Source: Candidatus Rifleibacteriota bacterium (lineage in GTDB: Bacteria > UBP17 > UBA6191 > JACPRK01). From it: DNA of 15,745 bases. The notes beneath the pieces were generated by a model, which made no database searches, had not been told where the DNA came from, and was given only the letters and a program-made list of their open reading frames with translations. Shown one piece after another: positions 1 through 15,745 of the stretch (positions within the stretch are counted from its first letter, which is position 1; each line of letters starts with the position of its first letter). The position numbers and the translations under genes were made by a program. The stretch is taken from assembly GCA_016213865.1 (NCBI GenBank), contig JACQZL010000336.1, positions 1-15,745 on the forward strand, written 5' to 3'.

Positions 1-1347
1 GACGGCGCGCTGCTCCTCCTACCCGCCGAAGTTCCTGACTGTAGGTCAGCACCGCGGCCGGCGCCGCCGTGTCCACCGTGAAGGTGCGTTTGGCCGGCTG
101 GGCCGTCAGAGGGTTGCCGGCTGGGTCGAAGGCGGTCAGGGTGATTTCGAAGGTGCCGTCGTCCAAGCCCAGGCCCGCCACGGACCGGGCAAAGGTCCAG
201 ACGGTGCCCCCGCCCGACATCGCGGTCGGCGGGACGTCGTTCGAGGGGTCGGCGGAGCCTCCGGCAAGCTCGACGGTCGGAGCGGCCTGAGTGATCGGCT
301 CGGAGAACGTGGCCGTTATCACAAACAGCTCGGCCCGGTAGGCCCGGTTTGCGTTGTTGTACGTCAGGACGACCGCCGGGCCGGTGGTGTCCACCGTGAA
401 GGTGCGGCCGGCCGGCTGGGCCGCCAGCGGCGTGCCGGTCGTGTCGAAGGCGGTCAAGGTAATGGTAAAGCTGCCGTCGTCCACGCTCCCGCCCACCACC
501 GTCCGCGTGTACGTCCAGACGGTGCCGCCGCCCGACATCGTGGTCGGTGCGACGTCGTTCGAGGAATCGACGGAGCCTCCGGCAAGCTCGAGGCTCGGAG
601 CAGCCGGCGTGAGCGGCTCGCTGAACGTGGCCGTCACCGTAAAGGTCTCGGCCCGGTAGGCCCGGCTCGCCTTGCTGTAGGTCAGCACGGCCTGCGGGGC
701 CGCCGTATCGATCGTGAAGGTCCGCTCGGCCGGCTGGGCCGCGAGCGGATTGCCGGCCGCGTCGCCGGCGGTCAGCGTCACCTCGAAGCTGCCGTCGTCC
801 ACGCTCCCGCCGGCGACCGTCCGCGTATACGTCCAAACGGCGCCGCCGCCCGACATCGCGGTCGGGGTCACGTCGTTCGACGCGTCCCCCGAGCCGCCGG
901 CAAGCTGCAGAGTCGGAGCAGCCGGCCCGATCGGCTCGCTGAACGTGGCCGTTACTCGAAACGTCTCGGCATCGTACCTCCGAGCGGTCTGGTTGTACGT
1001 GAGCACGACGGCCGGCGGCGTGGTGTCCACCACGAAGACGCTGCCCTCGGCCGGCAAGTTCTCGTAGCCCGCCGCGTCCTTGCCGCCGGCGATCGTCACG
1101 GTCGTCGAACCGTCCAGGATCGTGCTCCCGTCCTGGGGAAGGACCGTATAGGTGTAGGTCCAGACCGCAGAATCGCCGGTGGCCTGGAGCGGCGTCGCCG
1201 TGACGTCGTTCCCCGTTCCCGGACGGTTGACGGCGATGGAAGGCGTCGTGACGAGCGGCCTGCCGAAGGTCGCGGTGATGGCCAGGATGCCGGCACTGAC
1301 GGCGCTGTCGGGCTTGCTATACGCCAGAACCACCTCGGGTCCGTTCG
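1..1347 (-). repeat. Tandem bacterial Ig-like domain array closing module 4
   Basis: Four Ig-like repeats of about 106 residues are visible, at about 1020-1347, 702-1019, 381-701 and 69-380. The last three share TYxxxxRxxxAExFxVTATF, SEP, GGSxDxSNDV, MSGGGxVWT, DDGxFxITLTAxD, AQPAxRTFTVDT. They are closer to one another than to the first, so they look like a local expansion. Such repeats form beta-sandwich stalks in bacterial surface proteins. The last visible codons (positions 2 to about 49) read LTYSQELRRVGGAARR and fit the repeat consensus poorly after the first four residues. That is either a new domain or a lesion at the edge. Confidence 0.75.
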
Positions 1348-4300
1348 TGAGCCGGAACCCGACCACCCGATCGTTGCCGTAGTCGGCGACCCACAGGATG
1401 CCGCCGGTGACGAGGGAGGAGACGGGGCCTGACAGTCCGTAAGGAGAACACTCGGTGAGTTGCGTCCCCATCCCCGTCTGTCCCACCAGGCCGGCGGCCG
1501 GCTGTCCGTTGGGCATTGGCCCCACGGGCCAGACGGTCACCCGGTTGTTGCCGTTGTCGGCCACGAACAACCGGGTGCCGTCGCTGGCCACTCCGTCGGG
1601 GCCTGTCATGCTCGAGGCGGAGGAGGCCGCGCCGTCAGGCAAGCCCGAACCGAAATCCGGCTGGCCCAGTACCAGGGCAGCCGTTTGCCCGGTGGTCATC
1701 GGGAAGCTGTCCCAGATGAGCACGCGGTTGTTGGCATTGTCCGCCGTGAAGAGCCTGGTGGCGTCGAGGGCGACGCCGTACGGGCTGGACAGGCTCGAGC
1801 CAGTACGGCCCTCGCCGTTGGCGGTGTTGGTCATGGGAGAAAGCTGCCCCAGGAACAGGTCGGCCACCTGGCCGGTCGTCGTCGGAAAGCTGTTCCAGAT
1901 GGACACCCGGTTGTTGCCCTTGTCCGCCACGACCAGGCGGGTCCCGTCGCAGGCGACCCCGTACGGAGCGGACAGGCTCGACGCGCCCAGTCCGCCATTG
2001 TTCGCGGTACTGGTGAGCGCGGAAGGCTGGCCCAGGAACAGGTCGGCCGCCTGTCCGGTCGTCGTTGGCGCGCTGCTCCAGACGGACACCCGGTTGTTGC
2101 CCTTGTCCGCCACGAACAGCCGGGTCCCGTCGCAGGCGAGGCCGTACGGAGCGGAGAGGCTCGAGGCGCTCAACCCTCCGTTATTCGCGGTGTTCGAGAG
2201 GGGCGAAGGCTGACCCAAGAACAGGTCGGGCACCTGCCCACTGGTCGCCGGCAGGCTGTTCCAGACGGACACCCGGTGATTGCCGCTGTCGGCCACGAAG
2301 AGCCGCGTGCCGTCGCTGGCCAGGCCCCAGGGTTGGCGCAGTTTCCAGGCGGCCAGGCTTCCGGCGTTGTTGTACCCACCCGACGTGAAGGTGGGCTGGC
2401 CAAGGACCAGATCGGCTGGCTGCCTCGTTGCCGTGATGGGCTGCGTCCAGGCCAGAACGCGGCAGTTGGAACTGTCGGCTACGAAAAGCCTCGCGCCGTC
2501 GGACTCGACCGCGTAGGGATTGCACAGGCCGAGAGCACTGGTACCGCCCGTGCCCGAAGTGAAATCCGGCTGACCCAGAACCAGGTCGGCAACCTGTCCG
2601 TTGGCCGTCGGAAAGCTGCCCCAGACCAACACCCGGTGGTTTCCGCCATCGCCCACGAAGAGCCGTGTGCCGTCACTGGCGACCCCTTGAGGACCAGCCA
2701 GGCTGGAGGCGCTGCGCCCGCCGTTGTTGGACGTGTTCGACGTGAAGTTGGGCTGGCCCAGCACCAGGTCGGCCGGTTGCTTGTTGGCCGTCGGAAAGCT
2801 GCTCCAGACGAGCACGCGGTGGTTGTAGTTGTCGGCCACGAGGAGCCGCGTGCCGTCGCTGGCAACATCGTAGGGGGCATACAAGCTCGAGGCGCTGAGC
2901 CCCCCTGAGTTCGAATTGCCAGAACTGAGGTTGGACTGACCTAGAACAAGGTCGGCAGGCTGCTTCATTGCCGTAATCGGTTGGGTCCAGATCAGGACCC
3001 GGCTGTTGCCGTAGTCGGCAACGAAGAGCCGACCGCCGGCCCAGACAAGACCCCTCGGTCGGGTCAGACTGGAACTGCCAAGACCTTGTCCGTTTGAACT
3101 GAAGCTCGACTGACCCAGGACCAGATCGGCCGGCTGGCCGTTCCTTGTAGGGAAACTGCTCCAAACGAGGACTCGGTGGTTGTTGGTGTCCGCCACGAAG
3201 AGCCGAGTGCCGTCGGTGGCGATGCCACTGGGGAAGTTCAGACTCGAAGCACTCAGACCGCAGCGGTTGTCCCCACTCGATCCGAGATCCGGCTGGCCCA
3301 GAACCACGTCCGGCACCGCGTGGTTCAAGCTGGGTATCTGGTGCCAGAAGAGCACTCGGCTGTTGTAGGTGTCCGCAATTGCCAGCCGAGTCCCGTCAGT
3401 CCAGACAGCCTCGGGCGAGTACTCTCCCCGGCGAAGCGTCTCCAGACTGGACGTGTCCACCTGGCCCAACGCGATCGTCGCCCCCGGAGTCACGGACCAG
3501 CCCATCTGCGCGGCCACCGTGTCTCGCTGGCCAGTGCCCAGATTGACCGCGGTCAACGTGGCAGTCAACCCGACCGGCTCGAAGACGGTCGCACTCGGTT
3601 TGGGGCGCACCAGATAGACGAAGGTCTGGGTGGCACACGCCGGGATTGTGACCGGCAGCGCGGGCGGGGTCACCGTGTACTGCGAATCGACCGAACTGCC
3701 TTCGATCGCGAAGGTCAGGCTCGCGGAGTCCACTCGGAGCGAGGCCGTCCCGCTCTCGTTCTTGACCGTGAGCGTCACCGGCGTCGGGTCCACGGCGGGC
3801 AACTTCGGCTCCTGACGTCGCACGATGTCGTTGGTGAACGCCGTGAGCGTTGGAGGCCGGGTCTCGGTGGTGAAAGTCGCCCCGGTCGCCGGTGCGTTCT
3901 CGTGGCCCCCGGCGTCGCGTCCGTTCGCCACCGTCACGGAAACGAAGCCGTCATAGACGCTGGTGGCGCTGTCCCCGATTACCACCCAGTAGGTGTACGT
4001 CCACATCCTCGGATCGCCGGTGGCCGTCATCGGCGCGGCCACGACGTCGTTCCCGTCACCCGGCCGGTCGATCGAGACAGTCGGAACCGTGACGATCGGC
4101 TGGCTGAAGGTTGCCGTCAGGAAGAGTGGCCCCACGCCGACGATCCCACCCGCCCGACTGTGAGTGAGTGAGACGTTCACCGCGGCAGTGTCCACGGTGA
4201 AGCGAGCGTTGGTCGCAGGCGCATTCGAGTGGGCCGCGTCGTTGCGTCCGCCGGTGATCGTCACCCTCGCGGTCCCGTCCAGAACCGCGGAGCCGTCGTA

Positions 4301-7300
4301 GCCTGCCACCAGGTAGGCATACGTCCAGACCGCAGGGTCGGTGGTCGCGGCCATGGGCGTCGCTGCCACATCGTTGCCCGTGCCCGGCCGGTCGATCGCG
4401 AGGTTCGGCGTCGTGACCAGCGCGTCGCCGAAGGTCGCCGTGATGACCAGCGGGCCCGAGGTGACGGCACCCACGGGTTTGCTGTACGAGAGGGCGACCG
4501 ACAGCCCGTCGAGGCGGAATCCGAGGACCCGGTCGTGATTGCAGTCCGCGACCCAGAGAACGCCCTCGGCGACGACCAGCGAAACCGGCCCTGAAAGCGC
4601 GTACGGGGAGTAACCTCCCGCCACGCCCGCTCCCAGCGAGACCTGACCGATGACGCCCGTGGCCGGCTGCCCGGTGGCGGTGGGGGATTGCGCCCAGACG
4701 AGCACACGGTTGTGGTCTCGGTCCGCGACGAACAGCCGCGTCCCGTCGCTCGCGGCGTCTTGCGGTGCCCGCAGCCTCGAGGTGCCGCTGCCGTAGGCAC
4801 TCGACGTGAAGTCCGGCTGGCCCACGGCCAGGCCGGCCGGCTGCTGGTTCGCGACAGGCATCGAGCTCCAGACCAGGACCCTGTGGTTCTCGTCCACCAC
4901 GAGGAGCCGCGTCCCGTCGGCCGTGACGCCGCACGGGAAGAGCAGGCTCGAGGCACTGACGCCGCCCGTGTTCTCCGTGTTGACGCCAAAGCTGGGCTGC
5001 CCCAGGACGAGGTCGGCGGCTTGACGATGCAGGGTCGGAAGGCTGTTCCAGAGCAGAACTCGATTGTTGTCACGATCGGCCACGAAAAGCCGGGCCCCGT
5101 CGCTGGCGACGTCCAGCGGGCGTGCCAGGCTCGCGCTGTTGCACCCTCCGTTGTTGGCCGTGCTCGAGCCGAAGTCCGGCTGCCCCAGCACCAGGTCGGC
5201 CGGCTGCCCGTTCGTGGTCGGGGAGCCGTTCCAGATCAGCACCCGGTTGTTGTTCTCGTCCGCCACGTACAGCCGCGTGCCGTCGCTGGCGACCCCGCAG
5301 GGCAGGTCGAGAGACGCGGCTGGGCCCCCTCCATTGTCGGCAGCGCTCGACCCGAAGCCTGGCTGGCCCATGACGAGGTCGGCCGGTTGGCCGCTGGTCG
5401 TTGGCAACCCGTTCCAGACCAGCACCCGGTTGTTGGAACGGTCAGCCACGAAGAACCGGACGCCATCGGTGGCCAGGCCCCAGGGCCTGTTGAGGCTCGA
5501 GGCCAGGGCCCCACCGCTGTTGCTCGCTCTTGACGCGAAGTCCGACTGGCCTATGACCAGGTCCGCCGGCTGTTTGTTCGTCACCGGCAGAATGTTCCAT
5601 ACGAGAACCCGATAGTTGCTGGTGTCAGCCACGACCAGCCGAGTGCCGTCGATGGCCACTCCTTTGGGCTCGAAGAGACTGGAGCCACTCAGGCCTCCGT
5701 TGTTGTTCGTCCTCGAGGTGAAGTCCGGCTGGCCCAGGACCAGGTCGGCTGGCTGCCCGTTCGCAGTTGGAATGCTCGTCCAGACCAGCACGCGGTGGTT
5801 GTTGCCGCCGTCAGCCACGAAGACCCGCGTGCCATCGGTCGCGACCCCGTCCGAGTAGTCCAGGCGAGGCGTGCCGACTCCACTGCCGGCTGACGTGAAG
5901 TTGGACGGGCCCAGGACCAGGTCGGCCGGCTGTCGGTTCGTGGTCGGGAAGCTGTTCCAGATCAGCACCCGCTTGTTCTGGTAGTCGGCCACGAGGAGCT
6001 TCGTCCCGGCACACGCAACCCCTGCGGGCCCGCAGAGGCTGACCGCGCTGATACCTCCGTTGTTGTCGCTGGAAGCGGCGAAGTCCGGCTGACCCAGGAC
6101 CAGGTCGGCCGGCTGCCGGTTCGTGGTCGGGAAGCTGTTCCAGACCAGCACCCGACTGTTGTTGTAGTCCGACACGAACAGCCGCGTGCCATCCGTGGCA
6201 ACCCTCTGAGAGCCACTCAGACTCGAAGCACTGACGCCCCCATTGCTGTGGGCATTCGACGTGAAGTCCGGCTGGCCCAGGACCAGGTCGGCCGCCTGCC
6301 CGTTCGATGTCGGGAAGCTGTTCCAGATCAGCACTCGACTGTTGTCGTCACCCACCAGGAGCCGGGTCCCGTCGCTGGCCACCCCGCGAGGACTCTGAAG
6401 ACTCCAGGCGCTGACTCCGCCGTTATTTGCCGTGTTCGACGAGAGGTTCGGTTGGCCCAGCACCAGGTCGGGCGCGGCATGGTTCGAGCCGGGCAACTGG
6501 TTCCAGACGAGAACTCGATGGTTGGGGGTGTCCGCGACGACCAGCCGGGTCCCGTCGGTCCAGACCGCCTCGGGTTTGTTCAATCCCCTCCGCAGACTCT
6601 CCTGGCTATACCCGTCGAACTGGCCGAGGACGATCGTCGCTCCTGGCGACACGGTCCACGCCGTCGTAGCGGTCTCCGTGCCCTGCACGCTCGTGCCCAG
6701 GTCGGTCGCGGTCACCACCGCCGTGAGGGTGACCGACTCGAAGAGGCTCGCTCCCGGCTTGGGGCGCACCTGGAGGGTGAACGTCCGGGTGCCGCCAGGC
6801 AGGATCGTGGACGGCAGCCCAGGAGAGGTCACCTCGTACTGCCGGTCGGCGGAGAGCCCGCCCAGAGTAAAGGAGAGCCCCACCGCATCCACGCGGAGCG
6901 AGGACTGGTCACTGTTGTTCCGGACCCCGACCGTGACGGTCGTCGGGGGCGTGGCCGGAATCCCCACCTCCCTCCGCAAGGCAACCTCGGCGGCGGTCAG
7001 CACCACTGTCATCGGCCGGGTCAGGGTCGTGAACGTGGCGGCGGTCGCGGTCTCGTTCTCCACCCCCGACCCGTTCAGCCCACCGGCGATCGTCACCGTG
7101 ACCGGACCGTCCAGCACCGTCGTGCCATTGTGGCCGGCGACCAGGTACGTGTAGGTCCACACCGCCGGATCGGAGGTCGCCGTCATCGCCACGGCTGAAA
7201 CGTCGTTGCCCGTTCCGGGCCGGTCGACTGCAATCGTGGGGCCCGTGACCAGCGGCTCGCTGAAGGTCGCCGTGATGACCAGCGGACCGGACGTGACGGT

Positions 7301-10300
7301 CCCCACGGGCCGGCTGTAGCCCAGCGCGACCGTGAGCCCGTGCGACAGCTTGAATCCCAGCACCCGGTCGTGGCCGGAATCGACCACCCAGAGGATTCCG
7401 CCCGCGACGACCGAGGAAGAGGGGCCCGAGAGCGTGTACGGAGTGAAGGCGCCGGCGGCGGACGAGGCCATCGACTGCTGACCGACGACCCCGGTGGCCG
7501 GCAGCCCGTTCGCGGCCGGAATCCTGTTCCAGGCAAGCACCCGGTGGTTGGCCTGGTCGACCACGAAGAGCCGGGTGCCGTCGCTCGAGACCCCGGCCGG
7601 GTGGCTGGTCCCGGCGGCACCCAGGCCGCCCTCATTCGCCGTGCCGGACGAGAAGGACCTCTGGCCCAGCACCAGGTCGGCAGGTTGCCCGCTCGTCATC
7701 GGCAGGCCGTTCCAGGCCAGCACCCGGTTATTCCCAACGTCCGCCACGAAGAGCCGAACTCCGGCGAAGAAGCCGCCGGGCCCAGAGAGGCTCGAGGCCC
7801 CCAGCCCCGGGCCGTTCGCCAGGTTCGACGTGAAGTCCCGCTGGCCCAGCACCAGGTCCGCTGCCTGCTGGTTCGCCGCCGGAAAGCCGTTCCACATCAA
7901 CACCCGGTTATTGCCGTTGTCAGCCACGAAGAGGCGCAGGCCATCACTGGCGACCCCGCCCGGAGTCGCGAGGCTGGAGGCGCCAAGGCTGCCGCTGTTG
8001 GTGAGGCTCGACGCGAAGTCCGGCTGACCCAACACCAGGTCCGCCGCCTGCCCCGTCGCCGTGAGGGGCCGGGTCCAGGCCAGCACCCGGTGATTGCCGC
8101 CGTCCGACACGAACAGCCGGGCCGCGTCGCCAAAGGCGCCGTCGGGTCCCTTCAGACTGGAGGCGCTAACGCCGCCGTTGTTCGCGAGGCGAGAGCCGGG
8201 GTCCGGCTGCCCCAGGACCAGGTCGGCCGGCTGCTCATTGGCCAGCGGCAGGTGGTTCCAGACCAGCACCCGGTGGTTGCCCTTGTCCGTCACGAACAGG
8301 CGCGTCCCGTCGCTCGCAACTCGGAGCGGCTGAAGGAGGCTCCAGGGCTTTGCGCCCACGTCGTTCGCCGCATTCGACAGGAAGTCCGGCTGGCCCAGTA
8401 CCAGGTCGGCCGCCTGGTGGGTCACGGTGATGGGCTGCGTCCAGGCCAGCACCCGGTTGTTGTCGAGGTCGGCCACGAAGAGCCTGGTCCCATCGCATGC
8501 GACCCCGTAGGGGCTGTCGAGGCTGGAATCGTGGACACCCCCGAGATTGGCCGCCCCGGAAGCGAAGTCCGGTTGTCCGAGGACCAGGTCGGCCGGCTGC
8601 TGCGTTGCCGTGATGGGCTGCGTCCAGGCCAGCACTCGATTGTTGGTCCAATCCGCCACGAAGAGCCGAGTGCCGTCACTTGCGACTCCGTGGGGTTGGC
8701 ACAGACTGGAGGCGCTCCGCCCGCCCTGGTTCTGGGTGCTCGACCCGAAGTTCGGCTGGCCCAAAACTACATCGGCCGGCTGTTGTGTCGCCGTGATCGG
8801 TTGCGCCCAGACCAGCACTCGACTGTTAGCGACGTCTGCCACGAAGAGCCGGCTGCCGTCACACGCTACGCCATCGGGACCCTTGAGCGCCGTGGCACTG
8901 GTCGCCCCGCTGGTCGACGAGAAGTCCGGCTGCCCAAGGACCAGGTCGGCCGGCTGCTGCGTCTGCGTGATGGGCAAGTTCCAGACGAGCACCCGGTTGT
9001 TGCCCGAGTCCACCACGAAGAGCTGAGTGCCATTGGTCGCGACCCCGCAGGGTCCATTCAGGCTCGAGGCGCTCACGCCGCCGTTGTTCTGAGTGCCCGT
9101 GTCCAGGTCCGGTTGACCCAGCACCAGGTCGGCCGGTTGCCCGTGGACCGTCGGAAAGCTGTTCCAGACGAGGACCCGGTGGTTGGAGTTGTCCGCCACG
9201 AAGAGCCGCGTGCCGTCGCTGGCGAGGCCGCGAGGTTCCCGAAGCCCCGCTCGACGGCCGCCGGTGTTGAGCCCGCTGGTTTCGAACCCCGGCTGGCCCA
9301 GGACCACGTCGGGCACGGCCTGCAGGTCGCTGGGCATCTGGTTCCAGATCAGCACGCGATTGTTGCTGGTGTCCGCAATGGCCAGCCGGGTCCCGTCGCA
9401 GAAGACGTTCTGGGGCCGGTACTCCCCCCGCCGCAGCTTCTCTGAGCTGAAGGCATCCACCTGCCCCAGCACGATCGTCGCGCCCGGCGTCACCGACCAG
9501 GTCGCGGTCGCCTTCAGCGTGTCTTGCTGGCTGGTGCCCAGATCGGTTGCCAGCACCGTGGCCGTCAACGTGACTGGCTCGAACACCTTCGCGCTGGACT
9601 TGGGCTGCACCTGGAGGACCAGCTCGACGGAGGTGCCGGCCGTCACCGTGACCGGCAGCGCCGGCGCGGTCGTGTCGTACTGCGAATCGGCCGCGGTCGT
9701 GGCAATCGTGAAAGCCAGGCCCACCGAATCCACGCGCACGGGGGCTGCGCCGGCCGGGTTCGTGACCGTGACCGTCACCGGAGTCGGCTCGACGGGGCCC
9801 AGCGCCGGCTCCTGGCGCCGGGCCACCGCGGCGGCCGTCAGGGTGATGGTTGGCGGCTGGGTATCGACCGTGAAGGTGGCATTCTCGGCGGCATGGTTCT
9901 CGTTTCCAGCGGCGTCTCGGGCTCCGGCAATGGTCACCGTGGTCGGTCCGTCGAGGACCGGGCCGCCGTCGTAGGCTGTCACCATGTAGATGTACGTCCA
10001 GACCGCCGGATCGGCCGTCGCGGTCATGGCCACGGCCGTGACGTCGTTACCCGGGCCCGGCCGATCGATGGAGATGGTGGGCGTTGTGACCAGCGCAGCG
10101 CTGAAGGTCGCCGTGATGACGAGGGGACCTTGGCCGACAATGGACCCGGGTCCGGAATAGGTCATCGCGACCGTGAGGTCATTCTCGAGCTTGTACCCGA
10201 CCACCCGGTCGTTGTCAGTGTCGGCAACCCACAGGATCCCGCCGGCGACCACTGTGGACGACGGAGTGCCGATGTTGAAAGGGCTACATCCCGCAGCGAC

Positions 10301-11200
10301 CTTCCTCAGGGATGACTGGCCAGCTACACCGGTCGCGGGCTGCTGGTTGCCTGTCGGCATACTGGTCCAGACCGTCACCCGCCGGTTGCCGTCGTCGGCC
10401 ACGAAGAGACGGGCGCCATCGCACGCCACCCCGAGGGGCGAACTCAGACCCGCGGCACTCAACCCGCCGTTGTTCTCCGTGCTCGTTCCAAAGCTCGGCT
10501 GGCCCAGCACCAGATCGGCCGGTTGCCTCGTGGCCGTGACGGGCCTGGTCCAGGCCAACACACGGTTGTTGCCGGCATCGGCCACGTAGCATCGACTGCC
10601 GTCGCTCGCAGCCCCCACGGGGCCGTTCATGCTCGAGGCGCTCCGCCCTCCGTTGTTCACCGTGCTCGTTCCAAAGCTCGGCTGGCCCAGCACCAGATCG
10701 GCGGTCTGTTGCGTGGCCGTGACGGGCTGCGTCCAGAGGAGCACGCGGTGGTTGCCGCTGTCGGCCACCAAGAGATGTGTGCCATTTGTTGCGACGCCGG
10801 ACGGCCAGGAGAGGGTCGAAGCGCTCAGTCCCCCGTTGTTCTCCGTGTTGGTCACAGGAGAGGGCTGCCCCAGAACCAGGTCGGCGGGCTGAAAGCCACC
10901 CGTTGGTGGCACGTTCCACACGAGCACCCTGCTGTTGCCGGCGTCGGCCACGAAGAACCGGGTGCCGTCGCTCGCAATGCCGCGCGGTGAAGAGAACGTC
11001 GAAGCACTCAGCCCCCCATTGTTGGCGGTGTTGGTCAGTGGAGAGGGTTGCCCCAGAACCAGATCGGCGGGCCAACTGCTGGTCGTAGGGAGAGTGTTCC
11101 AGATCGAGACTCGGTGGTTGCCCGCGTCCGAGACGAAAAGCCTCGTGCCGTCCGTAGCGACACCCCAGGGACTCCGTAGGCTCCAAGCACTCACCTCGCC
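1..11200 (-). CDS. Giant secreted NHL-like propeller / Ig-like repeat protein, main body (3' end beyond window)
   Basis: The frame stays open for 3,733 codons from about 11200 to the left edge, with no stop seen. It continues the protein that starts at 12701 after a +1 shift. It holds 41 complete NHL-like blades of about 59 residues (VLGQPDF, SASSL, GVASDGTRLFVAD, NNRVLVW), the last part of one more, four 'ITATFSEP...DAAGN' Ig-like stretches before the terminal array, and three 'RRQEP' beta-sandwich domains. NHL blades form beta-propellers that usually bind protein or ligand; here the protein is exported, so a surface or extracellular role is inferred. No catalytic motif, anchor or sorting signal is visible, and the C-terminus lies outside the window. 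The long plus-strand frames here are antisense shadows: they repeat with the same blade period. I recognise the architecture but not a named gene. Confidence 0.85.
1348..3857 (-). repeat. Supermodule 4: beta-sandwich + 12-blade propeller
   Basis: The sandwich at about 3490-3857 begins IVRRQEPKLPAVDPTPVTLT. The propeller spans about 1348-3475, 12 blades in about 709 residues, from cap SLETLRRGEYSPEAVWTDGT to closing blade GLVGQTGM ... GGILWVADYGNDRVVGFRL. Blades 8-10 (about 1800-2240) are a distinct sub-type starting LFLGQPS or LFLGQLS and resemble one another more than other blades, also at the nucleotide level. This suggests recent local duplication. The module continues into the Ig-like array at the left end. 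Confidence 0.8.
3858..7011 (-). repeat. Supermodule 3: beta-sandwich + 12-blade propeller + 2 Ig-like domains
   Basis: The sandwich (about 6640-7011) is the most divergent copy, reading ALRREVGIPATPPTTVTV in place of ARRQEP. The propeller spans about 4512-6630: 12 blades in about 706 residues, with cap SQESLRRGLNKPEAVWTDGT and closing blade GVIGQVSL ... GVLWVADCNHDRVLGFRL. Two Ig-like domains follow (about 4185-4511 and 3858-4184), each with the DRPGxGNDV and WTYxYxV signature. One blade near 5910 has LVLGPSNF in place of LVLGQPDF. Confidence 0.8.
7012..9855 (-). repeat. Supermodule 2: beta-sandwich + 12-blade propeller + 1 Ig-like domain
   Basis: The sandwich spans about 9480-9855 (VARRQEPALGPVEPTPV) and is clearly homologous to that of module 1. 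The propeller spans about 7348-9470 with 12 blades in about 707 residues. Its cap blade reads SSEKLRRGEYRPQNVFCDGT and its closing blade GVVGQQSM ... GGILWVVDSGHDRVLGFKL. Several middle blades use the linker WTQPITATQQPAD rather than WNSFPTTNGQPAD. One Ig-like domain follows at about 7012-7347. All parts stay in one reading frame. Confidence 0.8.
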
Positions 11201-12509
11201 GCGCGCCCGAGGTCAGGTCGGGTTGACCCAAGACCAGCTCGGGAACCTGTCTGTTCACCGTCGGAAAGCTGCTCCAGACCAACACGCGGTTGTTCCCGCC
11301 GTCGCTGACAAAGAGCCGCGTTCCGTCGGAGGTAGCGGCACAGGGACTGGACAAAGCGAGACCAGTCAACCCCCCGTTGTTGGGAGAGGTCGAGCCGAAG
11401 TCAGGCTGACCCAGGACCAGAGCAGCAGACTGTTGCGTTTGCGTGATAGGCTCCGTCCACACGAGCACCCGATGGTTGCCGGTGTCTGCCACGAGGAGCC
11501 TGGTTCCGTCGGTCGAGACTCCTTTCGGGGCCGAAAGGCTCGCCGCGCTGATTCCCCCGAAATTCGGTTCGCCCGAGTCGAGACTGGCCTGCCCCAGAAC
11601 CAGGTTCGCCGGCTGCCCCGTGACCGTGATCGGTTGCGTCCAGACCAGAACTCGGTTGTTGTCGGGGTCTGCCACGAAGAGTCGAGCGCCGTCCGAGGCA
11701 AGACCTAGCGGGCGACCCATTTTGGACGCGGCCACTCCTCCTGAATTCGTCGTGAAGCTGTCCTGACCCAGGACCAGATCGGCCGGCTGGCCATTGCCAG
11801 TCGGGAAGCTGCTCCAGACAAGGACGCGGTTGCTGTCGGCGTCCGCCACAAAGAACCTCGTGCCGTCGCTCGCCATACTCTGTGGGTGGTTCAGACTCGT
11901 GGCCTTCGTTGAACCCTTGAAATCGGCCGATGCAAAACCTGGCTGGCCCAGGACGAGGTCCGGCGCCGCGTGATTGACGCTCGGCAGATGTCTCCACCAC
12001 AGCACCCGGTGGTTGTTGGTGTCAGCAATTGCCAGCCGAGTGCCGTCGGTCCACACCGACTTCGGGGAGTTCTCTCCAACTCGGTACTTCTCCAGACTGA
12101 ACGCGTCTTTCTGCCCCAGCACGATCGTCGCCCCCGGTGTCACCGACCAGGCCGTCGTCGCCGTCAGCGTCGCCTGCTGGCTCGTGTCCAGGTCGGTCAC
12201 GTTGACCGTGGCGGTGAGGGTGAACGGCTCGAACACCTTCGCGGTCGACCGGGGCCGAACCAGGAAGACGAACGTCTGGGTTATACTGGCCGGAACGGTG
12301 ACCGGCAGCGTTGGCGCAGTCGTGTCGTACTGCGAATCGGCTGCGGTCGTGGCCGTCGCGAAGGCCAGGCCGGCGAAATCCACGCGCACCGCGGTCGTGG
12401 GACTCGTGTTCGTGACCGTGACGGTCACCGGGGTCGGTTCGACGGGCCCCAGCGACGGCTCCTGGCGCCGGGCGACGTCGTTCGCGGTGAGGCCGGCGGT
12501 CCAGTCGGC
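9856..12509 (-). repeat. Supermodule 1: beta-sandwich + 11-blade propeller + 1 Ig-like domain
   Basis: Reading N to C (high to low coordinates), the 'ARRQEP' sandwich spans about 12125-12509 and ends in WSVTPGATIVLGQ. The propeller spans about 10178-12123 and the Ig-like domain (LVITATFSAAL ... ARDAAGNENHA ... ATFTVD) about 9856-10177. I count 11 blades, the first a special cap (SLEKYRVGENSPKSVWTDGT) and the last a special closing blade (GVAGQSSL ... GGILWVADTDNDRVVGYKL). At about 649 residues the propeller is almost exactly one blade shorter than the other three. The frameshift falls in blade 6. Confidence 0.8.
11198..11207 (-). other. +1 frameshift in a GC-alternating run (blade 6 of module 1)
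   Basis: Codons read in register down to 11202 give LVLGQPDLTSGA. From 11200 a different register gives GEVSAWSLRSPWGVATDGT, which is the normal middle of a blade. One extra base (or two missing) in the CGCCGCGCGCC run explains the change. No other shift is needed between here and position 1, because blade motifs keep the same codon phase throughout. It could be a real mutation or a sequencing error; the reads would tell. Confidence 0.85.
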
Positions 12510-12701
12510 CGCGCTCACCGGCGAAAGACCCGAAAGGAAGGCCGCCGCCAGCACGAGGGCCACGATGAAGCCCCGCCACCGCTGCCGGTCCGGCCGGAAT
12601 CGGAGACCATGGTCCCGTCCGGACGCCCCAGACGGCATGGCCCAAAAATCCGGCGCCGCTCGGCGGGTGTGACTCTCGAGTTTCCGGATCAGAACCGCCA
12701 T
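11202..12701 (-). CDS. Giant secreted repeat protein, N-terminal part with signal peptide, up to the frameshift
   Basis: These 500 codons are the authentic N-terminus of the giant protein. The start is ATG 12701, chosen for the GGGAGGAG Shine-Dalgarno five bases upstream; an in-frame ATG further upstream (12902) adds only low-complexity Arg/Gly sequence. Residues 1-44 are a long basic N-region, followed by a hydrophobic core (FIVALVLAAAFLSGL) and a likely signal peptidase I cut after VSA at residue 64. Residues 65 to about 190 form a beta-sandwich domain beginning ARRQEPSLGPVEPTPVTVTV, then come blades 1-5 and the start of blade 6 of propeller 1. The frame then leaves the repeat pattern at about 11201 and would end at a stop at 10284 after some 300 nonsense residues. 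An internal Met at residue 22 is a weaker start. Confidence 0.82.
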
Positions 12702-13048: not shown

Positions 13049-13055
13049 AGAAAGG
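13049..13055 (+). promoter_or_regulatory. Ribosome binding site supporting GTG 13064
   Basis: AGAAAGG lies eight bases before GTG 13064. Two earlier in-frame GTG codons at 13055 and 13058 overlap or abut it and are therefore too close. The choice adds or removes only three residues (VLV) at the N-terminus of the signal peptide. Confidence 0.55.
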
Positions 13056-13063
13056 TGGTGCTC

Positions 13064-14386
13064 GTGAACCAGACGTTGTCGCTCCGGGTCTCACGTGTCC
13101 TGCTGGTGCTCTGCCTGGCGTCCTCTGGCGCGCTGCGCGCCGACCCCGTCCGGCTAGGTCGCGGAGTGAACCTCGTGGCGGTTCCAGGAGCACCCGCCGG
13201 CTGCTCGGCACGGTCGTTGGCTGACGTGCTGGACGCCTCGTTGGTCGTTCGCTCGGTCTCGGAGGCAGGCCAGGTCAACAGGTTCGAAGCCTATCTGCCC
13301 GGCCTCGGCTCCAGCAACGGCTTCCCCGTGACCAGCCACGCCGGCTACGTGGTCCTACTCCCACGGGCCGTCCTGTTCGACCCGGTGGCCGTAACGGTCA
13401 CCTCCGCCAACCTCGCGCCGCTCGCGAGCGCCGGCGACGACCAGACCGGGGCCATCGGCATTTCCGTGACCTTGTCGGCTTCGTCCAGTCGAGATCCGGA
13501 CGGCTCGCCGCAAGCCCTGAGTTACTCGTGGCACTGGACCGGAGGGACCGGTCCGCAAATCGTCCTGTCCAACCCCGGCAACGTCACCGTCACCTTCACA
13601 CCCCCGGCGGAAGGTACCTACACGTTCACCGTCGAGGTCCACGACGGCGAAGCCTCCGCCCAGGACGTCACGACCGTCACCGTCCCGGCTGTGGACGGCT
13701 TCAAGAACGCGGCAAACTGGGAAGCCTTCGATGCCGGGAACGTGGGCACCGGAGGCACCTTCCCCAGCAAGGGCTACTACGGTGCGGTCGCTGACGGACG
13801 CTACGTAAACTACGTCCCGTACGCCAACAACTCACCGGGGGACACGCTTCGCCATGCTCGGGTCCTGCGCTACGATACGCAGGGGCTCTACACCTCGGGG
13901 ACGAGCTGGGACGCCTACGACGCGGCCGCCACCGCCCCCATCCCCGCGTCTGCGGTCAACCTGGGCTACGACGGGGCCGTGTGGGACGGCTCGCGTCACG
14001 TCTACTTCGTCCCGTATGGCGACCAGAACGGGGCGAACGCCTTCGCTCTGCGCTACGACACGCAGAACGACGCTTCCTTCGCGAGCACCGCCAACTGGGC
14101 AGCCTACAACGTGATGAACACGAGCGGGCTCACGCAGAGGGGTTACTACGGCGGCGCCTACGACGGGCGCTACGTGTATTACGCACCCTTCGCCGCCGGG
14201 AGCGAGACCACGTTCCACGGCCAGGTGCTGCGTCACGACACGACCCTGGCCTTCACGCAGACAGCGAGCTGGACTGTCTTCAACGCGGGGGTCACCGGCG
14301 ACCTGGCAACCGTCGGCTACAAGGGCGCGGTCTTCGACGGACGATACGTGTACTTCGTACCCTTCAGGGACACACCTTCCACGTAG
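13064..14386 (+). CDS. Secreted PKD-domain / six-repeat propeller protein, truncated at an in-frame TAG
   Basis: With the GTG start this gives 440 residues. Residues 1-26 are a signal peptide (RVLLVLCLASSGALRA, cut before DPV); Cys17 lacks a proper lipobox. Residues 28-102 (LGRGVNLVAVPG ... GFPVTSHAGYVVLLP) resemble the small GWNL-type N-terminal domain of secreted proteins. Residues 117-208 are a PKD domain (ASAGDDQTG, SSRDPDGSP, YSWHW, TYTFTVEVHDG). From residue 213 run repeats of about 60 residues with GYYGAVxDGRYVYFVPY, VLRYDT and SWxAYDA. Three are complete, and the fourth is cut by TAG at codon 441, after FVPFRDTPST. Blades 4-6 follow in frame to 14776, so the intended protein is about 569 residues. 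It is transcribed divergently from the giant gene. Function unknown; an exported binding or structural role is inferred. Confidence 0.8.
   Translation: MNQTLSLRVSRVLLVLCLASSGALRADPVRLGRGVNLVAVPGAPAGCSARSLADVLDASLVVRSVSEAGQVNRFEAYLPGLGSSNGFPVTSHAGYVVLLPRAVLFDPVAVTVTSANLAPLASAGDDQTGAIGISVTLSASSSRDPDGSPQALSYSWHWTGGTGPQIVLSNPGNVTVTFTPPAEGTYTFTVEVHDGEASAQDVTTVTVPAVDGFKNAANWEAFDAGNVGTGGTFPSKGYYGAVADGRYVNYVPYANNSPGDTLRHARVLRYDTQGLYTSGTSWDAYDAAATAPIPASAVNLGYDGAVWDGSRHVYFVPYGDQNGANAFALRYDTQNDASFASTANWAAYNVMNTSGLTQRGYYGGAYDGRYVYYAPFAAGSETTFHGQVLRHDTTLAFTQTASWTVFNAGVTGDLATVGYKGAVFDGRYVYFVPFRDTPST
14384..14386 (+). other. In-frame TAG replacing an aromatic residue in blade 4
   Basis: Aligned to its own repeats, the stop takes the place of Phe in blade 3 (TTFHGQVLRHDT) and Tyr in blade 5 (LSYHANVLRYDT). 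Blade 4 reads ST-stop-HTRVLRYDT. A single change of TAC or TAT to TAG is enough to explain it. Confidence 0.85.
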
Positions 14387-14776
14387 CACACGCGCGTCCT
14401 GCGGTACGACACCCTCGCGAGCTTCACGGCCCCGGAGAGCTGGAGCGCCTACGATGCCGCCGGCACGGACGGCCTGAATACGGTCGGGTATGTCGGAGCC
14501 GTCTTCGACAGCAGGTACGTCTACTTCATCCCGTATCAGCAGGGCCTGAGCTACCACGCCAACGTCCTGCGCTATGACACACGCGGCGATTTTGCCGCGA
14601 CCTCGAGCTGGACGGCGTACAACGCGGGGGCGGTGGCCGGCATGAACACCAAGGGCTACAAGTACGCGACGTACGTCGACCCTTACGTCTACTTCGTGCC
14701 CTACAACAACTTCACCGGCACGGGGAGCATGGAGAGCTGCTACCATGCCATAGCCCTCCGGTACAGGGTGCGATGA
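14387..14776 (+). pseudogene. In-frame 3' remainder (blades 4-6) of the six-repeat propeller protein
   Basis: Directly after the TAG the same frame continues HTRVLRYDTLASFTAPES, then two more repeats (WSAYDAAGTDGLNTVGYVG, then WTAYNAGAVAGMNTKGYK) and ends LRYRVR at TGA 14774-14776. Repeat motifs are fully preserved, with GAVFDSRYVYFIPY and NVLRYDT intact, so this stretch was recently under selection as coding sequence. It has no start codon or ribosome site of its own next to the TAG. It is either the disabled 3' end of the gene, or it is translated by readthrough, or the TAG is an error in the sequence. Confidence 0.75.
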
Positions 14777-14905
14777 GGGCCTGGGTTCGATGACGGAGGA
14801 CAGGAAGCCGCCCGGTTTGTATGCAAGGTGTCCTTCCAGCAAGTCCAGATTCATGGACATCAGTCCTTGACGGAAGGTCACCTTCCCGGTCAGACTCCGG
14901 TCGAA
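14777..14905. other. Intergenic gap between the propeller gene and the ATPase
   Basis: These 129 bases have no clear gene or terminator. On the plus strand an ATG at 14790 opens a 26-codon frame (MTEDRKPPGLYARCPSSKSR...) ending at a TGA at about 14868, with no strong ribosome site. The minus strand reads smoothly through the same bases as FRQGLMSMNLDLLEGHLA and KPGGFLSSVIE, which looks more protein-like than the usual antisense sequence here. It may be the remnant of a gene or mobile element. The ATPase may also begin upstream at GTG 14828 or TTG 14867. Confidence 0.3.
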
Positions 14906-15745
14906 ATGCTGCTGCACCCGATACTCCTCGAGCTCCTCAACGCCTCGGTCGCGCCCCAGCCGCACCGGCTCATCACCCGGCGCGACGCACGGTTGCCGGC
15001 TGTGCCAGGCAAGGTGCAGGCAGTCATCGGGATGCGACGGGCTGGCAAGACGACGTTTCTGCGCCAGTTGCTGGCCGAACGACGGGAGCAACAGTCGCCC
15101 GAACGCGCGCTGTTCGTGAGCTTCGACGACGACAGGCTCGCGGACCTGGCGTCCGAGCAACTCAGTCTTCTCTTGGAGGAGTTCTACCGGCGTTACCCGG
15201 AGTTGCGGGGACGGGAAACCGTAGCCTGGTTCCTGGATGAGATCCAGCTCGTGGTCGGCTGGGAGCGCTTCGTGCGACGGGTGATGGACACGGAGCTCGT
15301 CGAGGTGGTGGTGTCGGGCTCCTCGGCCAGGATGTTGAGCCGCGAGGTCCACTCCTCGCTGCGCGGCCGCGGCCTGGAGACCGTCATCCGGCCGTTCAGC
15401 TTCCGGGAGTTCCTGCGCCATCGTGGTCAGGAGCCGGAAAGGGAGCCCGCATACTGGACCAGTGCCCAGCGTTCGCTGGTCGAGAAGGCGTTTCGCGAGT
15501 ACCTGCGCTGCGGAGGATTTCCGGAGGCCCAAGGTCTTGCTCCGGCACTCCGCGTGGAGCTGCTGCAGGGGTATGTGGACACCGTGGTCTTTCGCGACGT
15601 GGTGGAACGATATGGGATCACTCAGGTGGCGGCACTGCGCTGGCTGGTGCGTCAATGCCTGCGCAATCCGGCCGCGGCCTTCAGCGTGCACCGCTTTCAC
15701 CAGGACCTGAAGGCCCAGGGACTTGGCGTGGCGAAGGACACCGTG
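14906..15745 (+). CDS. AAA_14 / DUF4143-type ATPase (3' end beyond window)
   Basis: 280 residues are visible. The Walker A motif is GMRRAGKTT (residues 42-50), Walker B is WFLDEIQ (108-114), and a sensor-like VVVSGSSARMLSRE lies at 134-147. These are followed by LRGRGLETVIRPFSFREFL (152-170). From about 199, YLRCGGFPEA and YVDTVVFRDVVERYGI are the hallmark start of the DUF4143 C-terminal region. Family members are about 380-450 residues, so roughly a third is missing to the right. They are cytoplasmic P-loop ATPases of poorly known role, often found singly and patchily distributed, with DUF4143 a winged-helix-like DNA-binding candidate. The start ATG 14906 puts a typical short leader (LLHPILLELLN) before the nucleotide site. 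There is no clear Shine-Dalgarno, and upstream GTG 14828 is an alternative. Confidence 0.88.
   Translation, partial: MLLHPILLELLNASVAPQPHRLITRRDARLPAVPGKVQAVIGMRRAGKTTFLRQLLAERREQQSPERALFVSFDDDRLADLASEQLSLLLEEFYRRYPELRGRETVAWFLDEIQLVVGWERFVRRVMDTELVEVVVSGSSARMLSREVHSSLRGRGLETVIRPFSFREFLRHRGQEPEREPAYWTSAQRSLVEKAFREYLRCGGFPEAQGLAPALRVELLQGYVDTVVFRDVVERYGITQVAALRWLVRQCLRNPAAAFSVHRFHQDLKAQGLGVAKDTV

What the first reader, a model, noticed from the sequence alone, without database searches (positions are those of the whole stretch)
1..12701. Four-fold supermodule architecture in a >4,200-residue exported protein
The protein is made of four homologous blocks: sandwich, propeller, then Ig-like. Each propeller opens with the same special cap blade (SxExLRRGExxPxxVWTDGT) and closes with the same special last blade (GILWVADxxxDRVxGFxL). 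The cap and closing blades resemble each other across modules more than they resemble neighbouring blades. This implies duplication of whole modules, with the ends fixed by structure and the middle blades free to vary. The number of Ig-like domains grows toward the C-terminus (1, 1, 2, at least 4).
Basis: partly seen in the sequence, partly recalled or inferred. Interest (0 to 1): 0.7.

Follow-up and report, generated by a model that had tools for sequence, protein, structure and literature searches.

The report
Giant protein of paired six-blade propellers
The window encodes most of a huge bacterial, probably exported, protein built from four similar blocks, and what looked like four 12-blade propellers is most likely a string of paired six-blade propellers each locked by one shared strand, a design known so far from a different (WD40) propeller family.

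Summary
The four-block architecture is real: on the minus strand, 12701 to the contig edge, (beta-sandwich, blades, Ig-like) x4, with 47 NHL-type blades (11+12+12+12) and 1, 1, 2 and at least 4 Ig-like domains. Two corrections. First, the gene is not one open frame: the frame changes at about 11.2 kb in block 1, so the 4,200-residue length assumes that this break is an error or recent damage. Second, a block is not one 12-blade propeller. Two AlphaFold2 models (blocks 4 and 2), aligned to solved structures, agree: blades 1-6 close into a six-bladed ring without a Velcro strand; blades 7-12 form a second ring closed by the strand in front of blade 1. This is the connectivity of the tandem WD40 protein Utp21, built here from NHL blades. 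In relatives, 318 of 378 blade runs are multiples of six. Cap and closing blades do cluster across blocks, but family profiles made without the window recognise the same ends, so they mark the seam; block duplication rests on a separate tree. Function (multivalent surface binding) is inferred only. New variant of a known kind.

The parts
12510..12701 (-). N-terminus with a hydrophobic stretch (FIVALVLAAAFLSGLSPVSA) that looks like a signal peptide; start codon unsure (ATG at 12701 or a later one)
   Evidence: translation; no signal-peptide predictor was available
12129..12509 (-). module 1 sandwich domain
   Evidence: alignment with the other three and with L001
10181..12128 (-). module 1 strand D0 (TIVLGQ) and blades 1-11; read in two frames
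11190..11235 (-). frame break inside the loop after blade 5 of module 1
   Evidence: GC3 switch
9851..10180 (-). module 1 Ig-like domain
9479..9850 (-). module 2 sandwich; folds as an almost all-strand domain, block pLDDT 85-96
9461..9478 (-). module 2 strand D0 (TIVLGQ), which closes ring 2 in the model
   Evidence: Velcro-closed Pizza6 structures align 121..835
8396..9433 (-). module 2 ring 1: blades 1-6 (model residues 140-485), closed without Velcro
   Evidence: nv1Pizza6 245 of 251 residues at 2.1 A over 140..485; NHLRC2 (6g7w) 137..488
7340..8329 (-). module 2 ring 2: blades 7-12
7013..7339 (-). module 2 Ig-like domain; block pLDDT 58-87
6638..7012 (-). module 3 sandwich
4505..6637 (-). 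module 3 strand D0 and blades 1-12 (two rings by homology; not folded itself)
   Evidence: 57% identical to module 2
3851..4504 (-). module 3, two Ig-like domains
3479..3850 (-). module 4 sandwich
3461..3478 (-). module 4 strand D0 (TIALGQ), which closes ring 2 in the model
   Evidence: Pizza6 121..834
2402..3433 (-). module 4 ring 1: blades 1-6 (model residues 140-483)
1349..2332 (-). module 4 ring 2: blades 7-12
2..1342 (-). module 4 Ig-like domains: four complete and a fifth cut by the contig edge; the second and third match Big_13

Best explanation
An exported giant protein made of four repeated blocks. Each block is a sandwich domain, a tandem pair of six-bladed NHL propellers, and one or more Ig-like spacers. 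In each pair the chain first lays down one strand (D0), then builds ring 1 from blades 1-6, which closes on itself without a Velcro strand, then builds ring 2 from blades 7-12, whose last blade lacks its outer strand and takes D0 instead. One strand at the start of the blades therefore locks a ring that is finished some 700 residues later, and ring 1 sits inside that closure. The cap and closing blades are the two sides of this seam, and the family's blade number is held at 6, 12 or 18 because only sixes close. Shown directly: blade counts, seam pattern, clustering, frame break. Shown in AlphaFold2 models only: the 6+6 topology. Inferred: that the protein is exported, and that it works as a multivalent rod, with seven or eight propeller faces held out on Ig-like spacers to bind ligands or other cells.
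For: Module 4 model: 609 of 944 residues at pLDDT 90 or more, blades mostly above 90. Module 2 model, made with other relatives (only the window's module 4 is in both alignments): mean 91.6. Velcro-closed Pizza6 (3ww9) aligns 245 of 251 residues at 2.0 A across 121..834, and 244 of 251 at 2.2 A across 121..835 in the second model; the non-Velcro designs nv1/nv2Pizza6 align 245 of 251 at 2.1-2.3 A to contiguous stretches within 140-487, and NHLRC2 to 137-498, in both models. Two non-Velcro Pizza variants are described in PMC8458387 (passages), and NHLRC2 is reported to lack a Velcro strap (PMC6107167, passages). Utp21 has the same connectivity: two rings joined by the 14D-1A and 7D-8A loops, strand D of the first repeat paired with the last (PMC3897721, passages). 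In relatives the 6->7 D-A loop is least or joint least conserved of eleven in both alignments, C-D loops average 10.9-11.2 residues at each blade, and the C-D loops of blades 1, 6 and 7 are the three least conserved in both. Blade runs that are multiples of six: 135 of 164, 110 of 124, 73 of 90. D motif after the last blade in 2 of 111 six-runs, 2 of 53 twelve-runs, 0 of 21 eighteen-runs.
Against: No solved structure; both models come from one method, and coordinates could not be inspected, so ring membership is read from aligned ranges. Foldseek on the second model is weaker: its listed NHL rows reach TM 0.41-0.68 by target length, and no Pizza6 or Thin row is in its top 50. Utp21 itself fits the whole first model poorly (TM 0.29/0.38, 11 A), so the two rings are not set at its angle. 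In one search the SOQ1 entry 7djj spans 132..839 while the other SOQ1 entries lie within 137-495; a few rows start early (13-88) and 6fq3 aligns 1..470 at 20.5 A. Module 1 has 11 blades, which does not fit 6+6, and is also the broken module; which blade is missing could not be told. The D-strand pattern alone would also fit two independent rings. In eighteen-runs the D motif is rare after blades 5 and 8 (4 of 21 each), and in twelve-runs it is scarcest after blade 6 (37 of 53). Loop 1->2 is as poorly conserved as 6->7 in the first alignment. Blade counts come from related, partly overlapping sets. The likeness of blade i to i+6 is above shuffles (0.428 against 0.405) but is the best offset in only 26 of 134 runs. 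Nothing here tests function; export rests on a signal-like stretch.
Confidence: 0.82

Rival explanations
1. Each block is one very large 12-bladed propeller with a cap blade and a closing blade.
For: One seam per 12-blade run in sequence and no clade of special blades at 6/7. 12-bladed propellers exist, though PMC9218822 (passages) says the largest known form by oligomerisation (Ph1500).
Against: Complete six-bladed structures superpose on both models at about 2 A with 243-245 of 250-251 residues, which a 12-fold ring should not give. Runs of the same blade type also come as 6 and 18.
Confidence: 0.05
2. Each block is two independent six-bladed propellers in a row, each closed by its own strand (D0 with blade 6, D6 with blade 12).
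For: The sequence pattern of twelve D-A-B-C units fits it equally; P0164 and P0187 have a longer linker after six blades; the D motif after blade 6 is the scarcest in twelve-runs (37 of 53).
Against: Both models place D0 with the last blade and give ring 1 its own sixth D strand. The least conserved crossover is in the D-A loop, while the C-D loop of blade 6, where this rival needs the crossover, keeps 11 residues.
Confidence: 0.12
3. The four-block protein is an assembly artefact, or a decaying pseudogene (this could be true together with the best explanation).
For: One frame break in module 1 and one in-frame TAG in the divergent neighbour. PMC9218822 (passages) reports a non-trivial number of propellers disrupted by frameshifts and stops.
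Against: Modules differ too much (module 2 is 57% and 59% identical to 3 and 4) to be collapsed repeats; 3731 codons stay open after the break; third-position GC stays high in the used frame on both sides; P0004 and P0126 carry two sandwich blocks each.
Confidence: 0.15

Closest known systems
Tandem WD40 propellers (Utp21; Aip1 and 2YMU as cited in its paper)
   Same: Two rings in one chain, ring 1 nested inside the closure of ring 2, strand D of the first repeat pairing with the last blade (PMC3897721, passages).
   Different: Seven plus seven WD40 blades there, six plus six NHL blades here. No WD40 family was matched at E 0.01, and Utp21 does not superpose on the whole pair. Utp21 is a eukaryotic intracellular protein; this one is probably bacterial and exported (both inferred).
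NHL-repeat six-bladed propellers (Thin, TRIM71, PknD sensor domain, Pizza6, NHLRC2)
   Same: Same Pfam repeat (PF01436) and same six-bladed ring.
   Different: Single rings, each with its own Velcro or, in NHLRC2, none; here two rings share one.
LRP6, megalin and LDL-receptor propellers
   Same: Several propellers on one extracellular chain; listed by Foldseek.
   Different: From recall: their rings are separate domains divided by EGF modules. Here the rings are nested pairs divided by sandwich and Ig-like domains.
Sandwich + 12-blade modules of Candidatus Wallbacteria (L001/P0125), Candidatus Riflebacteria (P0126, P0007) and unnamed P0004
   Same: Same domain order and sandwich; P0125 and P0126 are 48% and 43% identical to module 2.
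   Different: One or two such blocks seen in them, four here.

Membership tests
NHL repeat proteins (PF01436) | Matches the curated repeat model above its cut-off | tested here: met
   337 bits against a cut-off of 20 for the frame-B protein, 53.6 for the frame-A protein
NHL repeat proteins (PF01436) | Six-bladed ring | tested here: met
Tandem WD40 propellers | WD40 repeat sequence | tested here: not met
   No WD40 family at E 0.01 or better in the Pfam scan
Tandem WD40 propellers | Ring 1 nested in the Velcro closure of ring 2 | tested here: met
   Aligned ranges 121..835 (Velcro-closed Pizza6) and 137-498 (nv1/nv2Pizza6, NHLRC2) in both models; model-level only
Single 12-bladed propeller | All twelve blades in one ring | tested here: not met
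   Six-bladed targets fit as closed rings in both models
Bacterial Ig-like domain Big_13 (PF19077) | Above the curated cut-off | tested here: met
   31.3 bits against 27 for 407-1018; the first Ig-like domain after the blades of module 4 (1019-1354) matches no Ig family there, and the other Ig-like domains were not scanned apart
Exported proteins | Cleavable signal peptide | not tested
   Hydrophobic stretch seen by eye; no predictor at hand

The most novel reading that the evidence does not exclude
A common but, in my searches, undescribed class of prokaryotic NHL proteins chains six-bladed rings as single, double or triple units that share one Velcro strand, so that blade number comes in sixes. 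This protein strings four doubles into one chain; no other protein shows more than two separate twelve-blade runs. The shared strand would make each block an all-or-none folding unit: the last ring cannot close until all its blades have been made and, if it is exported unfolded, moved out.
Probability: 0.6. Interest if true: 0.55.

Novelty: new variant of a known kind. Interest (0 to 1): 0.45.

Why it matters
PMC9218822 (passages) says that blade amplification has no counting system and that repetitive propellers mostly keep their lineage's number but show many larger and smaller ones. Here is a large natural family in which the count is mostly held to multiples of six, with a structural reason that can be tested. 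It would also show that the nested closure known from WD40 proteins arises with another blade number and blade type, and it would give a better reading to many proteins now named hypothetical or NHL repeat protein (one search scored 7,392 relatives of 519-1652 aa at E 0.001 or better, of which 120 were listed and counted here).

Tried and rejected
Own genome: none is held. Close relatives by exact peptide patterns in genome contigs: none confirmed; sandwich in viral contigs: none confirmed; near-identical DNA in plasmids, 6000 bases given: none. Finding the missing blade of module 1 by position profiles: positions 10 and 3 nearly tied, inconclusive; the profile window of module-1 blade 6 also reaches a few residues upstream of the frame break, in the wrong frame. 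Spacing between blades as a marker of the ring border: 6->7 has the largest spread (sd 3.7 over 133 runs) but only slightly. Source organism: sandwich relatives are in three Wallbacteria MAGs (3 of 39 genomes of that phylum at E 1e-15) and the neighbouring ATPase is nearest to one of them among those 39 (52%); no other phylum was compared, so this is a lead only. Print search: nine of the ten paper searches bore on blade numbers, tandem propellers or NHL proteins; no title or abstract start in their listings names a tandem NHL double ring; they cover open-licence papers only, and one search found nothing. Sandwich and Ig folds were not searched on their own. A claim that the sandwich and blade trees conflict was dropped: module 1 is absent from the blade tree.
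Full report
WHAT IS THERE. On the minus strand from 12701 to the contig edge lies a gene for a giant repeat protein. It is not one open reading frame: the first part is read in ORF 12902-10284 and the rest in a 3731-aa frame that starts at 11194 and is open at base 2. The change lies in the loop after blade 5 of module 1, around 11.19-11.24 kb, and third-position GC switches frame there, so both sides look coding. The database copy of this protein (P0003, 3640 aa) holds only 5 blades of module 1 in the first count, that is, it starts after the break. The neighbouring plus-strand gene has an in-frame TAG, so two lesions sit within 16 kb. Error and decay cannot be told apart.

BLOCKS AND BLADES. 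A core pattern finds 47 blades in four runs, 11, 12, 12 and 12. Pfam sees NHL repeats (337 bits). The four sandwiches are 48% (m3/m4) to 71% (m1/m2) identical. Ig-like domains number 1, 1, 2 and four plus a fifth cut off. In the FastTree of all 47 blades, caps, closing and next-to-last blades each form a clade of four (0.987, 0.999, 0.907). Over strands A-C the next-to-last blades are no more alike than other blades (0.557 against 0.559), so their signal probably lies in strand D. Middle blades of modules 2-4 keep only weak register (0.6125 against 0.5999 shuffled, p = 0.036) (all).

NOT ONE RING OF TWELVE. The decisive step was structure. Module 4 (944 aa, 46 sequences) and module 2 (945 aa, 33 sequences; only the window's own module 4 is in both alignments) were folded. 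VIA-align shows two kinds of match in both models. Velcro-closed Pizza6 and the TRIM71 and PknD domains run from residue ~121 to ~835, that is from strand D0 to the last blade, with nearly all their residues aligned at about 2 A. The non-Velcro designs nv1/nv2Pizza6, and NHLRC2, run over contiguous stretches within 137-498, blades 1-6. Ring 1 is therefore blades 1-6, complete in itself, and ring 2 is blades 7-12 plus D0. The same connectivity is described for Utp21 and, there, for Aip1 and 2YMU (PMC3897721, passages).

SEQUENCE SUPPORT FROM RELATIVES. One search gave 99 proteins (2052 aa or longer by design; one is the window's own, left out of the counts) and one search listed 120 of 7,392 (519-1652 aa). 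The genome scan kept 80 of 518 loci; record titles name Wallbacteria, Bdellovibrio- and Oligoflexus-like groups, Myxococcales, Omnitrophota, Elusimicrobia, Planctomycetota, Acidobacteria, Patescibacteria-type groups and three archaeal MAGs, among others. Some loci encode proteins that are also in the other two sets (L001 is P0125). Blade runs of three or more that are multiples of six: 135 of 164, 110 of 124 and 73 of 90; of the 60 others, 21 have 11 blades (runs joined over gaps up to 150 residues, gaps of 105-150 counted as one missed blade). A stricter count on the loci with cut-off runs set aside gives 63 of 93. Runs of 6, 12 and 18 that have enough sequence on both sides (111, 53 and 21; the rest were dropped) carry a D motif after the last blade in 2, 2 and 0, and before the first in 87, 34 and 20. 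Inside the runs the motif is usual, but in eighteen-runs it is rare after blades 5 and 8 (4 of 21 each), which I cannot explain, and in twelve-runs it is scarcest after blade 6 (37 of 53). In two family alignments the D-A loop 6->7 is the least or joint least conserved of eleven, while C-D loops average 10.9-11.2 residues throughout; the C-D loops of blades 1, 6 and 7 are the three least conserved in both. That is what crossovers between rings at D0-A1 and D6-A7 would leave. Blade i resembles i+6 slightly more than chance (0.428; 2000 per-protein shuffles reach at most 0.418; p = 0.013 for common reorderings), but offset 8 is best more often per protein (29 against 26 of 134).

DUPLICATION. 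Profiles made without the window's rows recognise the first and last blades of all four modules as positions 1 and 12, so their clustering does not by itself show module duplication. A tree of 12-blade regions does: window modules 2, 3 and 4 together 95/94, m2+m4 100/99, P0004's two modules 100/100 (module 1 left out because it is broken). The sandwich tree groups only m1+m2 (91/97) and leaves the other window modules unresolved.

FUNCTION. Inferred, not shown: a secreted or surface protein that offers seven or eight propeller faces on a flexible rod. The Pfam scan showed no enzyme family above its cut-off. The NHLRC2 paper describes NHL repeats as often serving protein-protein interaction (PMC6107167, passage).

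PAPERS. PMC9218822, PMC8458387, PMC3797127, PMC3897721 and PMC6107167 were read as passages; all others as search listings only.

Noticed in passing
window 13055-14788 +: Divergent neighbour: signal-like start, PKD domain (K319L-like, 7.6e-15) and ~60-aa repeats (GYxGAVFDGRYVYFVPY), interrupted by an in-frame TAG at 14384-14386 with high third-position GC on both sides.
   Followed up: partly
window 14828-15745 +: AAA_14 ATPase (PF13173, 1.4e-31), cut by the contig edge; 52% identical to one in a Wallbacteria MAG.
   Followed up: partly
relatives among P0019-P0048: Many proteins of about 3,200 aa, several named as Myxococcota genera, carry runs of exactly 18 blades, with PKD domains listed: candidates for triple nested propellers.
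   Followed up: no
relatives with 18-blade runs: The D-strand motif is rare after blades 5 and 8 (4 of 21 runs each), unlike every other inner position; unexplained.
   Followed up: no
relatives P0005 and P0028: Arrays of nine (P0005) and five (P0028) separate runs of six or seven counted blades in one chain, about 53 residues per blade.
   Followed up: no
P0126 and P0007, both with a longest contig of 42,771 bases: Two giant Riflebacteria proteins with the same sandwich; P0007 starts inside a blade run, as if its gene were also broken or cut.
   Followed up: no
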